Under the pieces are notes generated by a model, which was given only the letters and a program-made list of their open reading frames with translations, made no database searches and had not been told where the DNA came from. Both the position numbers and the translations under genes were made by a program. Of a stretch of DNA of 64,000 nt, positions 5,682-11,018 are shown piece by piece. The stretch spans positions 2,189,501 through 2,253,500 of the forward strand of contig NZ_CP016953.1 in the NCBI RefSeq assembly GCF_001708305.1, given 5' to 3'. Position 1 is the first letter of the stretch. Each line of letters begins with the position of its first letter. Source of the DNA: Streptococcus himalayensis. Lineage in GTDB: Bacteria > Bacillota > Bacilli > Lactobacillales > Streptococcaceae.

Positions 5682-8132
5682 TTATACGATATAAGCATCG
5701 CTGACTTCTTCATCAGAGATAGTATCTGAAATAAAGCTGCCATTGCTGGTGCGTTCTGAGAAGGAAAGTTCTGAAAGATTGATTTCATGGTGCTTGCCGG
5801 AGTTTGAGATAACGTGTAACAGTTGACCATCGTCAGAGCTATCTCCTTGGTGGAATAAATCAACCTCAACTGCTTCTCCTTGCACCATTCCTGCAACAAA
5901 GACGCGGTGCGGTTTGGCCTTTAATTCACGCAAGACTTGCAAACCGCGATTGGCACGGCTGGTTGCTGGAATCTCCTCAACTGCTACTTTCTTCAATGCC
6001 CCTCGATGGGTCAAAAGATAGAAGGCCTTGCTGGATACAAGGAAGGCTGCTGCCACGGTATCATCTCCTTTTAGGTTAATCGCTTTGACACCAGCTGCCT
6101 TAGCACCAACAACTGGTACTTCCTCACTATTAAAGCGGAGAGCATAGCCATTTTTCGTGATAATCATGACATCTTCTAGCTGAGCCGGTGCCACAAATAC
6201 CACTTGATCCTCATCATTTTTCAATTTGGCAAATTTAAGGGATTTGGACTTATAGGTTCGCCAAGGACTGAACTCACTACGCTCGACACGCTTGATTTGT
6301 CCCATTTTGGTTGCAGCAATATAGATACCTGTATCAAAATTGTCTACTAATTCCGCATAGATGATTTCTTCACGAACTTCAAAATTGGAAATGGTCTGGC
6401 TGAGGTGTTCGCCAATTTCCTTCCACTTGATGTCAGATAATTCATGAACAGGTCGGTAAATAACATTTCCTAGACTTGTGAACAACAAGAGCTGTTGAGT
6501 CGTTTTTGCTGGGCTCATAAAGATTAAGCGATCATCGTCACGTTTACCGATTTCTTCTACAGTTGAAGCTGCAAAGGAACGAGGACTAGTACGTTTGATA
6601 TAGCCTGCTTTGGTAATGCTTACATAAGTCTCTTCTTCTACCACAAGACTTGCTGTGTCGATTTCAATGGTCTTAGCCGTATCTTGCAGTTCACTCAGAC
6701 GTGGATTGCCAAATTTCTTTTTCACCTCACGAAGTTCTTTTTTCATGAGATTATACATGGTACGCTCATCGCCGATAATAGCAGCCAAGTAGGCAATTTT
6801 CTCGCGAAGCTCTGCTTCTTCTTTCTCAAGAACGACAACGTCGGTATTGGTCAAGCGGTAGAGTTGTAAGGTCACAATCGCTTCTGCCTGCTCTTCGGTA
6901 AAATCATAGCTGATCTTGAGATTTTCCTTGGCATCCGATTTATTTTCGCTAGCACGAATAAGCGCAATGACTTCATCCAAAATCGAAATAACACGAATTA
7001 AGCCTTCAACAATATGTAGGCGTTTTTCAGCCTTTTCCTTGTCAAAGCGACTGCGAGCCAGAATGACTTCTTTGCGGTGGGCAATGTAACTGGTCAAAAT
7101 CGGAACAATCCCAACCTGACGCGGTGTGAAATTGTCAATCGCAACCATGTTAAAATTATAATTGACCTGTAAATCCGTATATTTGAAGAGATAATTCAAA
7201 ATCAAGTCACGATTGGCCTCTTTTTTGAGTTCAATGGCAATGCGCAAACCAGTTCGGTCGGATTCATCACGAACTTCCGCAATCCCAGCTACCTTATTAT
7301 TCACACGAACATCGTCAATTTTCTTGACTAGAACAGACTTGTTGATTTCATAAGGAATTTCTGTGACAACAATTTGCTCCTTGCCACCTTTTAACTGCTC
7401 AATTTCAGTCTTAGACCGTACGACAACGCGCCCTTTTCCGGTTTCATAGGCTTTCTTGATTTCATCGCGCCCTTGGATAATCGCTCCGGTTGGAAAATCA
7501 GGTCCCGGCAAGAATTCCATAAGTTTGTCCACCTTGGCAGTTGGATGGTCAATCATGTAAATCACGGCATCAATAACTTCTGCAAGATTGTGCGGTGGAA
7601 TGTCCGTTGCATATCCAGCAGAAATCCCTGTCGCCCCATTGACCAAGAGATTTGGAAAGGCCGCAGGCAATACAGTCGGCTCTTTCTCTGTATCATCAAA
7701 ATTCCAAGCAAATGGTACGGTTTTCTTTTCGATATCCTCTAGCAGAAAGCCCGCCATTTCAGACAAGCGTGCCTCGGTATATCGCATAGCAGCTGGCGGA
7801 TCACCGTCCATAGAACCATTGTTTCCATGCATTTCGACCAAAATCTCACGATTTTTCCAGTCCTGACTCATACGAACCATGGCATCGTAAATCGATGAAT
7901 CACCATGCGGATGGAAATTCCCCATGATGTTTCCGACAGACTTAGCTGATTTTCGATAGGATTTATCAAAGGTATTGCCATCCTTATTCATGGAATAAAG
8001 AATCCGCCGTTGCACAGGCTTCAAGCCATCTCGAATGTCTGGCAAGGCCCGCTCCTGAATGATATATTTGGAGTAGCGTCCAAAACGCTCTCCCATAATG
8101 TCCTCAAGGGACATGTTTTGAATGTTACTCAT
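5682..8132 (-). CDS. parC: DNA topoisomerase IV subunit A
   Basis: Breakage-reunion subunit of topoisomerase IV, the chromosome decatenase. 816 aa, family length. Winged-helix region with HPHGDSSIYDAM (residues 74-85), active-site tyrosine Y118 in AAMRYTEARL, and a C-terminal beta-pinwheel (GYIKRTSPRSF, GYALRFN). The quinolone-resistance positions S79 and D83 carry the susceptible-type residues. No clear Shine-Dalgarno lies in the usual window before this ATG; a palindrome AGGCTTTAAGCCT lies there instead. The start is kept because MSNIQNMSLEDIMGERFGRY is the conserved streptococcal N-terminus. Confidence 0.97.
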   Translation of the reverse strand: MSNIQNMSLEDIMGERFGRYSKYIIQERALPDIRDGLKPVQRRILYSMNKDGNTFDKSYRKSAKSVGNIMGNFHPHGDSSIYDAMVRMSQDWKNREILVEMHGNNGSMDGDPPAAMRYTEARLSEMAGFLLEDIEKKTVPFAWNFDDTEKEPTVLPAAFPNLLVNGATGISAGYATDIPPHNLAEVIDAVIYMIDHPTAKVDKLMEFLPGPDFPTGAIIQGRDEIKKAYETGKGRVVVRSKTEIEQLKGGKEQIVVTEIPYEINKSVLVKKIDDVRVNNKVAGIAEVRDESDRTGLRIAIELKKEANRDLILNYLFKYTDLQVNYNFNMVAIDNFTPRQVGIVPILTSYIAHRKEVILARSRFDKEKAEKRLHIVEGLIRVISILDEVIALIRASENKSDAKENLKISYDFTEEQAEAIVTLQLYRLTNTDVVVLEKEEAELREKIAYLAAIIGDERTMYNLMKKELREVKKKFGNPRLSELQDTAKTIEIDTASLVVEEETYVSITKAGYIKRTSPRSFAASTVEEIGKRDDDRLIFMSPAKTTQQLLLFTSLGNVIYRPVHELSDIKWKEIGEHLSQTISNFEVREEIIYAELVDNFDTGIYIAATKMGQIKRVERSEFSPWRTYKSKSLKFAKLKNDEDQVVFVAPAQLEDVMIITKNGYALRFNSEEVPVVGAKAAGVKAINLKGDDTVAAAFLVSSKAFYLLTHRGALKKVAVEEIPATSRANRGLQVLRELKAKPHRVFVAGMVQGEAVEVDLFHQGDSSDDGQLLHVISNSGKHHEINLSELSFSERTSNGSFISDTISDEEVSDAYIV

Positions 8133-8203: not shown

Positions 8204-8815
8204 TTAAGATGACAGATTTACCGTTTGATACAAGCTGTAACCTTCGTAGTAATAACTGTGGTCAATCCCTTTCATATACAGTTCTCGACTTGTAATATCA
8301 TCTGTTAATGCCTGTTTTAATACATGCTTCATTTCCGTATCTCGAATAGGGCTTCTTTCCATAGCAAGTAGGTAATCTTCTTTATCAACTTTCGACCAGT
8401 CAATCACCTGTCCTAACTCAACTTTTAACAGGTGGTCTAACCAAATACGCATACTTCGGCCATTTCCCTCACGAAAAGGATGGGCAATATTCATTTCCAC
8501 ATACTTCTCCACAATCTCTTCAAAAGTAGATTGAGACATCTTTTCGATATGATCAAGCGAGGTCTGTAAATACATGACCGGCGCAAAACGGAAATTTCCT
8601 TTCGCTAGATTAACTGTCCGCACATGACCAGCAAATTCATAGATTTCCTCAAAAAGAAAATGATGGATAAATAAAAGTGTCGCAACAGTCCCTGCTGGTT
8701 TATCAGCTATAAGATTTTCTTCAAATAAACGTTTGGCACGAATTTTACTGATTTTTTCTTCCTGTCTAGCCAATTCGAGAGAATCTGTTATTTCCAATCT
8801 ATTTTCTAAAACCAT
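8204..8815 (-). CDS. Fic-domain AMP-transferase with C-terminal inhibitory motif (class III type)
   Basis: 203-aa Fic/DOC protein. The catalytic loop is HPFREGNGRSMR (residues 112-123) with H112 and the GNGR anion-binding nest intact, so enzymatic competence is likely. The flap region (KGNFRFAP) is present. Near the C-terminus S187-Y-Y-Y-E191-G192 matches the autoinhibitory (S/T)xxxE(G/N) motif, which places it with single-chain class III Fic proteins such as the Neisseria enzyme. It lies between parE and parC on the same strand, 71 bp before parC. A 16-bp-stem inverted repeat at 8871-8909 lies about 55 bp before its ATG. The RBS is weak. Target not shown by sequence. Confidence 0.9.
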   Translation of the reverse strand: MVLENRLEITDSLELARQEEKISKIRAKRLFEENLIADKPAGTVATLLFIHHFLFEEIYEFAGHVRTVNLAKGNFRFAPVMYLQTSLDHIEKMSQSTFEEIVEKYVEMNIAHPFREGNGRSMRIWLDHLLKVELGQVIDWSKVDKEDYLLAMERSPIRDTEMKHVLKQALTDDITSRELYMKGIDHSYYYEGYSLYQTVNLSS

Positions 8816-8870
8816 AATTGCTCACTTTCTGACATAACTTTACATGCCCACATTTCAAATGGAAGACAAC

Positions 8871-8909
8871 ACTTAAACAACTAAAACGATATTTTTTAGT
8901 TGTTCAAGT
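8871..8909 (-). promoter_or_regulatory. Large inverted repeat upstream of fic
   Basis: Two 16-bp arms (ACTTAAACAACTAAAA and TTTTAGTTGTTCAAGT, one mismatch) around a 7-base loop. There is no T-run in the minus direction. It could be an operator or an mRNA hairpin before the fic start. Confidence 0.5.
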
Positions 8910-8957
8910 TAGTGAGGCAGCTAGCTTGACCGCCCGATAGCGGTAAACGTGCTAACA

Positions 8958-9060
8958 GGGAGTGGGACTCAATCGTGATTTCGAAGAAATCGATTTTGTC
9001 AATTTCGCTTTCTCATTTTTAGGCTCAAGTATTAACAGTCCACTGGACTGTCCCAGCCTC
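8958..9060 (-). repeat. Structured GGCTGGGAC / GTCCCACTCC intergenic element after parE
   Basis: On the minus strand it opens with GAGGCTGGGACAGT and closes with AGTCCCACTCCC, so the ends can pair. Two further perfect hairpins lie inside: CAGTCCACTGGACTG (9036-9050) and GATTTCGAAGAAATC (8977-8991). The same GCTGGGAC core appears in the mltG terminator at 32528. It probably folds as an extended 3' structure after parE. Confidence 0.5.
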
Positions 9061-9074
9061 TATTAAGTACTGCA

Positions 9075-11018
9075 TTAAAACACCGTCGCTTCTTCCAAGG
9101 TAAACTTGACGTTATCTTCAATCCACTTGCGGCGAGGTTCAACCTTATCTCCCATGAGGACCGATACTCGGCGTTCCGCTCTTGCTAAATCTTCAATAGT
9201 CACACGAATCAGCGTACGGGTGTCAGGATTCATGGTGGTTTCCCAGAGCTGGTCTGCGTTCATCTCTCCAAGGCCCTTGTAGCGTTGCAACATGGCACCC
9301 TTGCCGAAGTCCTTGCGGAGTTGCTCCAGTTCATTATCCGACCACGCGTAGGCAATTTTTTCCTGCTTACCTTTTCCCTTACTCATCTTATAAAGTGGCG
9401 GCAGTGCAATATAGACCTTACCAGCCTCCACTAAGGGACGCATATAGCGGTAGAAAAAGGTTAAGAGGAGTGTCTGAATATGAGCTCCATCCGTATCCGC
9501 ATCGGTCATGATGATAATCTTGTCGTAATTGGCATCTTCCAGATTAAAGTCCGAACCAACACCAGCTCCAATGGTATAAATCATGGTATTGATTTCTTCA
9601 TTTTTGAGAATGTCTGCCATCTTAGCCTTGGCGGTATTGATAACCTTTCCTCGAAGGGGCAAAATAGCCTGAAATTTGCGATCTCGTCCTTGTTTGGCAG
9701 ATCCGCCGGCTGAATCTCCCTCGACCAGATAAAGTTCGTTTTTGGCTGCATTTTTGGACTGGGCTGGGGTTAATTTCCCTGATAAGAGGCCCTTATCCTT
9801 CTTGTTTTTCTTACCATTTCGGCTTTCATCGCGGGCTTTGCGTGCTGCTTCTCTCGCATCTCTTGCCCGAATGGCCTTGCGAATGAGATTAGAAGCTAAT
9901 TCGCCATTTTCCAAAAGAAAGAAGGTTAATTTTTCAGATACGATACTATCAACTGCTGGACGAGCAAGGGGGCTGCCTAGCTTGTCCTTGGTCTGTCCTT
10001 CAAACTGCAAATGCTCCTCAGGTACCAAGATCGACAGGACAGCTGCCAGACCTTCTCGGTAATCGGATCCTTCCAAGTTTTTGTCCTTTTCCTTGAGAAG
10101 ACCTGTTTTTCTAGCATAGTCATTCATGGCCTTGGTAATGGCAGTCTTAAGCCCTGTCTCATGCGTTCCACCGTCTTTGGTACGAACGTTGTTGACAAAG
10201 GAAAGAATATTATCTGAATAGCCATCATTATACTGAAGCGCCACTTCAACTTGGAATCCACTCTCTTCCCCATCGAAATACAGAACAGGTGTCAAGGTTT
10301 CCTTGTCTTCATTCAGATAACTAACGAAATCCTGCACGCCATTTTCATAGTGGAATTGGCTTTCTTCTCCTGTCCGCTCATCCAGTAGGGTCAAGGTTAC
10401 TTGTTTCAAGAGAAAGGCTGACTCATTTAACCGCTCCGCAATGGTATTGTACTTGAAATCAGTCGTTGAAAAAATACTGCTATCTGGCATAAAACGAACC
10501 TTAGTGCCAGACTTAGACTTGGGAGCTGTCCCAACCTTTTCCAGTCCTGTTACCGGTTTACCACCAGTTTCAAAACGCTGGCGATACACAGCTCCGTCAC
10601 GTGTAATTTCCACTTCTAGCCAACTAGATAGGGCATTCACTACAGAAGAGCCTACACCATGTAAGCCTCCTGAAGTCTTATAACCACCCTGACCGAATTT
10701 ACCTCCGGCATGAAGCACTGTAAAAATAACCTCTACTGTCGGAATCCCCATGGCGTGCATCCCAACGGGCATACCACGCCCATGGTCCGATACACTCAGG
10801 CTACCGTCTTTATGAATGGTGACATCAATCTGGTCTCCAAATCCTGATAAGGCTTCATCGACTGCATTGTCCACAATTTCCCAGACCAAATGATGGAGTC
10901 CAGCCCCGTCGGTTGACCCAATATACATCCCAGGACGTTTCCGGACCGCATCCAGCCCTTCTAAGACTTGAATCGCATCATCATTGTAATTGTTAATATT
11001 GATTTCCTTTTTTGCCAC
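9075..11018 (-). CDS. parE: DNA topoisomerase IV subunit B
   Basis: ATPase subunit of topoisomerase IV. 647 aa. GHKL ATP site: EIVDNAVDEA, DHGRGMPVG (residues 78-86), and the lid GGYKTSGGLHGVG around Y113. Toprim domain: YLVEGDSAGGSAKQGRD and DADTDGAHI; PLRGKVINTAKAKMAD is the quinolone-associated stretch. The start is GTG at 11016-11018 with an AGGAGG six bases upstream. The usual streptococcal neighbour plsY is absent upstream; a fic gene lies downstream before parC. Confidence 0.97.
   Translation of the reverse strand: MAKKEININNYNDDAIQVLEGLDAVRKRPGMYIGSTDGAGLHHLVWEIVDNAVDEALSGFGDQIDVTIHKDGSLSVSDHGRGMPVGMHAMGIPTVEVIFTVLHAGGKFGQGGYKTSGGLHGVGSSVVNALSSWLEVEITRDGAVYRQRFETGGKPVTGLEKVGTAPKSKSGTKVRFMPDSSIFSTTDFKYNTIAERLNESAFLLKQVTLTLLDERTGEESQFHYENGVQDFVSYLNEDKETLTPVLYFDGEESGFQVEVALQYNDGYSDNILSFVNNVRTKDGGTHETGLKTAITKAMNDYARKTGLLKEKDKNLEGSDYREGLAAVLSILVPEEHLQFEGQTKDKLGSPLARPAVDSIVSEKLTFFLLENGELASNLIRKAIRARDAREAARKARDESRNGKKNKKDKGLLSGKLTPAQSKNAAKNELYLVEGDSAGGSAKQGRDRKFQAILPLRGKVINTAKAKMADILKNEEINTMIYTIGAGVGSDFNLEDANYDKIIIMTDADTDGAHIQTLLLTFFYRYMRPLVEAGKVYIALPPLYKMSKGKGKQEKIAYAWSDNELEQLRKDFGKGAMLQRYKGLGEMNADQLWETTMNPDTRTLIRVTIEDLARAERRVSVLMGDKVEPRRKWIEDNVKFTLEEATVF

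What the first reader, a model, noticed from the sequence alone, without database searches (positions are those of the whole stretch)
8204..11018. Fic AMP-transferase gene lodged between parE and parC, whose products resemble known Fic targets
Seen: the fic gene lies between the topoisomerase IV subunits on the same strand, with an intact HPFREGNGRS catalytic loop and a self-inhibitory SYYYEG motif. The ParE ATP lid has the tyrosine (Y113 in GGYKTSGGLHGVG) that corresponds to the residue AMPylated by FicT toxins in GyrB/ParE. Known: FicT toxins and the class III Neisseria Fic modify type II topoisomerases. Inference: this Fic may tune or poison the topoisomerase IV encoded around it, a target-linked arrangement I have not seen described in streptococci. 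A 16-bp inverted repeat before fic could be its control site.
Basis: partly seen in the sequence, partly recalled or inferred. Interest (0 to 1): 0.8.

Follow-up and report, generated by a model that had tools for sequence, protein, structure and literature searches.

The report
Fic gene in streptococcal defence slot
A self-inhibited enzyme of a family that tags proteins with AMP sits between the two genes of an essential DNA-untangling machine, in a place where many streptococci swap phage-defence genes in and out, so its position by its presumed target looks like a feature of that place rather than a special link.

Summary
An intact class III (NmFic/EfFIC-type) fic lies between parE and parC on one strand, with H112, SYYYEG/E191 and ParE Y113 as stated. 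It is not a one-strain accident. In 70 of 80 Streptococcus genomes with NmFic-like sequence, fic lies behind parE on the parC side (46 whole, 24 broken), with strong purifying selection among whole copies (median dN/dS 0.05). Target linkage fares worse. The parE-parC interval is a variable slot even without fic: at least 1 kb in 51 of 70 fic-less genomes surveyed. Cargo includes restriction-modification, AbiH, AbiD, GmrSD and PARIS-like genes. Tight spacing to parE belongs to the slot: other first genes start within 40 nt of parE in 55 of 74 loci, fic in 25 of 35. Two old fic lineages occupy the slot and swap within related flanks. In 124 fic loci outside Streptococcus no parE/parC/gyrase gene was found in the flanks held. 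PADLOC models the family as a candidate (PDC-S04). Best reading: a mobile, autoinhibited AMP-transferase, probably a dormancy or abortive-infection effector that may AMPylate GyrB/ParE, parked in a streptococcal defence slot. Activity, target and defence role were not testable here.

The parts
8204..8815 (-). fic: class III (NmFic/EfFIC type) AMP-transferase, 203 aa
   Evidence: NF046029 299 bits; 5nv5 E 1.9e-77; PADLOC PDC-S04 E 6.6e-99
8456..8482 (-). catalytic loop HPFREGNGR, residues 112-120
   Evidence: kept in 46 of 48 in-slot streptococcal frames of at least 190 aa
8240..8257 (-). C-terminal inhibitory motif SYYYEG, residues 187-192 (Y188 and, just after it, Y193 match NmFic Y183/Y188)
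9075..11018 (-). parE, topoisomerase IV subunit B
   Evidence: TIGR01058 1159 bits
10680..10682 (-). ParE Tyr113, ATP-lid tyrosine of the kind that Fic toxins AMPylate
   Evidence: motif identical in the 30 ParE loci examined
5682..8132 (-). parC, topoisomerase IV subunit A
   Evidence: TIGR01061 1204 bits
8871..8909 (-). 16-bp inverted repeat with 7-nt loop between parE and fic; single copy in the genome at the cut-off used
   Evidence: (terminator-like)
8958..9027 (-). dispersed short repeat in the parE-fic spacer; 22 other places in the genome match parts of this spacer

Best explanation
The gene encodes a stand-alone class III Fic AMP-transferase held inactive by its own C-terminal helix (E191). 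It is mobile accessory cargo in a genus-wide exchange slot between parE and parC, where streptococci also keep restriction-modification, abortive-infection and other accessory genes. The slot lies directly behind parE, so whichever gene comes first probably rides on the parE transcript. Alleles and occupied or empty versions are swapped by homologous recombination in parE, parC or neighbouring cargo. When inhibition is lifted (by analogy with NmFic/EfFIC: monomerisation and auto-AMPylation at the tyrosines equivalent to Y188/Y193, or a metal switch), the enzyme AMPylates a housekeeping protein, most likely the ATP-lid tyrosine of GyrB and/or ParE, and causes reversible growth arrest that works as stress dormancy or abortive infection. 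Shown here: identity, motifs, slot, allele replacement, purifying selection. Inferred: activity, target, trigger, defence role, co-transcription, recombination as the route.
For: NmFic equivalog HMM above cut-off; best matches among solved structures are class III Fic proteins, NmFic among them; catalytic and inhibitory motifs kept together in 45 of 48 in-slot frames. In-slot in 70 of 80 genomes. Slot variable without fic: at least 1 kb in 51 of 70 fic-less genomes. The first non-fic gene behind parE falls in a cluster whose representative hit a restriction-modification, AbiH, GmrSD or PARIS-like family in 26 of 74 loci. Gap of 40 nt or less: 55 of 74 other first genes (two of the 74 are parC itself), 22 of those 26 defence-family genes, 25 of 35 fic. 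Two fic lineages; one clade of all in-slot fic rejected, p-AU 2.9e-40 on a quick tree. G260 against G250: upstream blocks 90-98% and downstream 71-95% identical, fic body 50-75%. dN/dS median 0.049 over 203 pairs. Family matches PADLOC PDC-S04 and is on plasmids: 777 of 72,556 records at 60-80% identity. Of 8 genomes with fic elsewhere only, 4 have it amid restriction-modification-like genes (labels by cluster and by reading the sequences).
Against: I found no assay of activity, target or phage protection for this protein. Family identity is not target identity: the tested S. pneumoniae class III Fic modified neither GyrB nor ParE detectably. Of 74 first-slot ORFs, 48 were not in the counted defence families (2 of these are parC). 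Among the 104 non-Streptococcus loci clustered, few neighbours recur and I recognised restriction-type genes only in a minority. Of 50,697 phage records only 2 hold a relative above 50% identity. Two whole in-slot copies (G262, G136) carry changed catalytic residues and one frame (G025) lacks the inhibitory motif. The 40 fic-less loci were chosen mostly for long intervals, and the loci are not independent.
Confidence: 0.6

Rival explanations
1. One reading: fic is kept beside parE because its product tunes or poisons the topoisomerase IV encoded around it (target-linked regulation).
For: 24 of 46 in-slot frames start 9-31 nt behind the parE stop, in the S. suis clade, relatives of the window, G012 and G030/G031. 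Two separate fic lineages ended up in the same interval. Related Fic proteins AMPylate ParE/GyrB.
Against: Other cargo hugs parE just as closely; none of 124 loci outside Streptococcus showed a parE/parC/gyrase gene in the flanks held; 13 of 46 frames lie 1.9-3.7 kb away; close relatives G083/G283 lack it with near-identical parC starts; 24 of 70 in-slot copies are broken.
Confidence: 0.12
2. Neutral or selfish passenger: a mobile gene that keeps arriving in a recombination-prone interval and decays, with no benefit to the host.
For: 24 of 70 in-slot copies are truncated or interrupted; patchy presence among near relatives; plasmid carriage.
Against: dN/dS near 0.05 among whole copies, none of 203 pairs at or above 1 (pairs not independent); catalytic and inhibitory motifs kept together in 45 of 48 frames.
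Confidence: 0.15
3. The same Fic in the same slot, but its target is not a topoisomerase (for example another ATPase or a phage protein).
For: Target specificity varies between Fic proteins; streptococcal Sp0496 did not detectably modify GyrB/ParE; no EfFIC target came up in the passages read.
Against: NCBIfam equivalog to NmFic, which AMPylates E. coli gyrase (passage) and is listed with gyrase Tyr109 (passage).
Confidence: 0.3

Closest known systems
EfFIC of Enterococcus faecalis (PDB 5nv5 and others, code assignment recalled; PMC6408439, start of abstract and passages seen)
   Same: Class III single-domain Fic with inhibitory Glu in the C-terminal helix; 5nv5 is the best sequence match among solved structures
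   Different: Its gene neighbourhood was not examined; the AMPylation/deAMPylation metal switch is shown for EfFIC, not for this protein
NmFic of Neisseria meningitidis (PDB 5ckl, 5cgl by molecule name)
   Same: SYYYEG motif and both auto-AMPylation tyrosines at equivalent positions (Y183/Y188 there, Y188/Y193 here); E 1.2e-57
   Different: Different phylum; gyrase is its reported target; adjacency to parE/parC was not tested for it
VbhT and P. fluorescens Fic-1 (class I Fic toxins)
   Same: Same catalytic motif class; reported to AMPylate GyrB/ParE ATP-lid tyrosine
   Different: Inhibited by a separate antitoxin protein; here inhibition is in cis
ant-like gene in the parE-parC region of viridans streptococci (PMC3323274, passages seen)
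   Same: Accessory gene between parE and parC, present in pneumococci with recombinant parE and parC
   Different: An ant-like gene; the restriction, abortive-infection and fic cargo is not mentioned in the passages read
SoFic of Streptococcus thermophilus (PMC11514479, passages seen)
   Same: Fic-domain gene treated as an anti-phage system in a streptococcus
   Different: The passage ties SoFic to a class II Fic; the words parE, parC and topoisomerase do not occur in that main text

Membership tests
Class III Fic AMP-transferase (NmFic type) | HPFx[D/E]GN[G/K]R catalytic loop | tested here: met
   HPFREGNGR at residues 112-120
Class III Fic AMP-transferase (NmFic type) | inhibitory [S/T]xxxE[G/N] in a C-terminal helix of the same chain | tested here: met
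   SYYYEG, S187/E191, 12 residues from the C terminus; the helix itself is inferred from EfFIC/NmFic
Class III Fic AMP-transferase (NmFic type) | single Fic domain of about 200 aa; equivalog model above cut-off | tested here: met
   203 aa, one Pfam domain; NF046029 299.2 bits against 230
Class III Fic AMP-transferase (NmFic type) | auto-AMPylation tyrosines of the inhibitory helix (NmFic Y183, Y188) | tested here: met
   Y188 and Y193 present; both kept in 47 of 48 in-slot frames; NmFic positions from a review
Class III Fic AMP-transferase (NmFic type) | AMP transfer to GyrB (or ParE) | not testable with these tools
   Needs biochemistry
FicTA toxin-antitoxin (class I) | separate antitoxin gene carrying the inhibitory motif next to the toxin | tested here: not met
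   No same-strand ORF of 60 aa or more lies between parE and fic or fic and parC (shorter ORFs not listed); the motif is in cis
   0 of 45 other Lactobacillales loci and 0 of 79 named loci, flanks 1.5-6 kb or to the contig end
   Gap of 40 nt or less: fic 25 of 35, other first ORFs 55 of 74
Defence-gene hotspot (conserved core flanks, variable defence cargo) | conserved flanks with cargo of differing kind, part of it of known defence families | tested here: met
   Enrichment over other intergenic intervals was not tested
PADLOC candidate PDC-S04 | full-length profile match | tested here: met
   PDLC04842, E 6.6e-99, residues 1-200
PADLOC candidate PDC-S04 | protects against phage | not testable with these tools
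   Needs plaque assays; that PDC stands for phage defence candidate is recalled

The most novel reading that the evidence does not exclude
The slot behind parE gives an AMPylating defence effector the transcript of its own target. A topoisomerase-directed Fic, co-transcribed with ParE at a fixed dose, acts as a latch that halts decatenation and replication when phage or stress lifts its inhibition, and its two old allele classes are kept in circulation by selection. Target linkage would then be real, though exploited through a general slot.
Probability: 0.1. Interest if true: 0.75.

Novelty: new member of a known kind. Interest (0 to 1): 0.45.

Why it matters
It shows why gene neighbourhood can mislead: a Fic lies next to its family's favourite target, yet the position is explained by a cargo slot. 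The slot itself deserves attention: behind an essential quinolone-target gene, streptococci exchange restriction, abortive-infection and Fic genes, and recombination there could move defence cargo together with parE/parC alleles. It also makes the role of stand-alone class III Fic proteins testable by simple deletions and phage assays.

Tried and rejected
Target linkage as the cause of position: not favoured after the cargo-gap control and the outside-genus search. One single origin of all in-slot copies: rejected by the AU test on a quick tree; the same test for each lineage alone did not finish. Chance insertion in one strain: rejected. Class I toxin-antitoxin pair: no antitoxin gene of 60 aa or more. 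fic as part of a fixed two-gene module with the RelA_SpoT-domain or DUF1232 neighbour: both recur (21 and 29 of the 80 loci clustered) but also occur without fic, so not adopted. Inverted repeat as operator: no evidence. PARIS-like label: rests on AriA-type hits of one ATPase in L290; the other ATPase, in L202, had only weak hits, and the partner ORFs had none. BifA, a streptococcal Fic in print, is a different RhuM-Fic protein (PMC6529018, passages).

Full report
What is there. One search gives parE 9075-11018, fic 8204-8815 and parC 5682-8132, all on the minus strand. Fic is a 203-aa single-domain protein, an NmFic equivalog by NCBIfam. Its best matches among solved structures are 5nv5 (E 1.9e-77; EfFIC, code assignment recalled) and, among others, NmFic 5ckl (E 1.2e-57). 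The inhibitory motif is at the C terminus, so it is class III; the residues matching NmFic Y183 and Y188 are Y188 and Y193 (NmFic numbers from a review, passages seen). The genome is a Streptococcus by inference: its same-genus genome G255 has a contig of the same length and hit position as the S. suis YS56 contig.

How common it is. One search covered 284 genomes of the genus; 118 had a match at E 1e-3. The handle limit forced me to drop G179, a fragment. For the other 80, located parE and parC (79 of 80 each), and one search found fic behind parE on the parC side, same strand, in 70 of 80. In one of these (G037) parC is 136 kb off. Of the other ten, G255's contig ends after fic, G125 had no parE match at the cut-off, and eight carry fic elsewhere. 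G037 also has a second, interrupted copy on another contig. By the search's reading 45 of the 70 are full-length without a stop and 25 are truncated or interrupted; one of the 25 (G248) holds a whole 204-codon frame, so 46 are whole and 24 broken. Of the whole ones, G262 and G136 have changed catalytic residues. dN/dS among in-slot frames has a median of 0.049 over 203 pairs with dS 0.05-1.2, maximum 0.38 (pairs are not independent).

The slot. Maps of fic-bearing intervals and of 40 fic-less loci (mostly chosen for long intervals) show cargo of many kinds. Of 70 fic-less genomes taken in handle order (204 were searched), the interval is at least 300 bp in 62 and at least 1 kb in 51; the median of the 69 measured is 1632 bp. 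Representative cargo hits: type IIG restriction-methyltransferase and specificity subunit; Eco47II endonuclease, cytosine methylase, GmrSD, streptomycin adenylyltransferase, RelA_SpoT and DUF1232; AbiD; AbiH, a second GmrSD_N protein, DndB, Abi_2 and RES; an AriA-like ATPase; a transposase. Nine of the twenty cargo proteins scanned, and the L290 partner ORF as a tenth, had no hit in either library. An ant-like gene in this interval has been in print at least since 2004 (PMC3323274, passages).

The control that decides. If fic sat behind parE because of its target, it should be coupled to parE more tightly than unrelated genes. One search measured the gap from the parE stop to the first same-strand ORF of at least 100 codons, taking the earliest start codon, in 109 of 112 loci. 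With fic first, 25 of 35 gaps are 40 nt or less; with another ORF first, 55 of 74 (two of the 74 are parC itself). Of the 26 first genes in the counted defence families, 22 lie within 40 nt: five AbiH-like at 18 nt, two AriA-like at 23, restriction genes mostly from -14 to 23. Tight coupling thus belongs to the slot. Target linkage also predicts recurrence elsewhere, but none of 79 named loci (L032-L110, chiefly Clostridia, flanks up to 6 kb), 25 Lactobacillales loci (1.5 kb) and 20 further ones, 11 from other Streptococcaceae (up to 6 kb), shows a ParE-, ParC- or gyrase-like match. Some flanks are cut by contig ends. Results on the other side: in the S. suis clade fic starts 22-24 nt behind parE with a plausible ribosome site, so co-expression with parE is likely there, and two fic lineages reached the same place.

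Evolution. The tree has two old fic lineages in the slot (window type and the common S. suis type; window against G249 58% identical). One clade of all 48 in-slot rows is rejected (p-AU 2.9e-40, quick tree); the test for each lineage alone did not finish. The two types are interleaved among close relatives: ParE identity to the window is 98-99% in G160, G177 and G027, while Fic identity is 80, 80 and 54%. In G260 against G250, 60-nt blocks are 90-98% identical up to the start of fic, 50-75% in its body and 71-95% in the next gene, with the spacer and first codons nearly shared. That looks like allele replacement by recombination inside a stable neighbourhood. G083 and G283, with parC starts 97.7-97.9% identical to the window in DNA, have an interval of about 260 bp and no fic.

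The spacer. The window's 262-nt gap (measured from the last matched ParE codon) is longer than in G028 (21 nt from the stop). It holds a dispersed short repeat (22 other places in the genome match parts of the spacer) and a single-copy 16-bp inverted repeat that folds well (z -4.83) and looks terminator-like. It may uncouple fic from parE; a control-site role is unproven.

Likely function. The family matches PADLOC candidate PDC-S04. Plasmids carry it: 777 of 72,556 records match at 60-80% identity (1634 at any level, which includes distant Fic families). Phage records rarely do: 6 of 50,697 match, 2 above 50% identity. Of 8 streptococcal genomes with fic elsewhere only, 4 (G059, G080, G218, G280) have it amid restriction-modification-like genes and one (G081) beside mobilisation-like genes (labels from clusters and sequence reading). 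I infer a mobile, autoinhibited growth-arrest effector, plausibly defence-related. The topoisomerase target rests on family precedent: Fic-1, FicY and, weakly, S. aureus Fic modify ParE or GrlB (PMC7479194, abstract and section 17), and NmFic modifies gyrase (passages). Against it, S. pneumoniae Sp0496 did not detectably modify either subunit, though it is a different Fic.

Print check. By title and abstract, the listings showed no paper on fic between parE and parC of streptococci or on this interval as a defence slot. The library holds only open-licence papers; of the papers I opened I saw abstracts, passages and one section, not whole texts.

Noticed in passing
L268, L275, L272, L274: In four of eight streptococcal genomes with fic only outside the slot, it lies amid restriction-modification-like genes; in two it follows HsdR/HsdS-like ORFs and precedes an N6-methyltransferase (labels by cluster and reading).
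   Followed up: partly
L228:1647-2207, cluster 5: A RelA_SpoT-domain protein of about 186 aa recurs in the parE-parC slot and also beside the out-of-slot fic of G231 (21 of 80 loci clustered); it weakly matches PADLOC PDC-S33.
   Followed up: partly
window 8958-9027: Dispersed short repeat in the parE-fic spacer; 22 other places in the genome match parts of this spacer.
   Followed up: partly
G000:C1:250251-250538: A second, distant Fic-family gene (40% identity over query residues 44-129, 211-codon frame) elsewhere in the window's genome.
   Followed up: no
L277:6001-6606: In one Enterococcus faecium plasmid a fic of this family lies downstream of a vanA cluster, between insertion-sequence transposase genes and a recombinase gene.
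   Followed up: no
L199, L200, L230 (1547-2887), L248, L284, L295, L298, L304, L308: Nine cargo ORFs from slot loci, each of a kind found first behind parE, have no Pfam or PADLOC hit at E 1e-3: possible undescribed defence genes.
   Followed up: no
L213 (G025): A 195-codon in-slot fic frame that groups with the window type in the tree but ends without the inhibitory motif and has an end resembling the other lineage.
   Followed up: no
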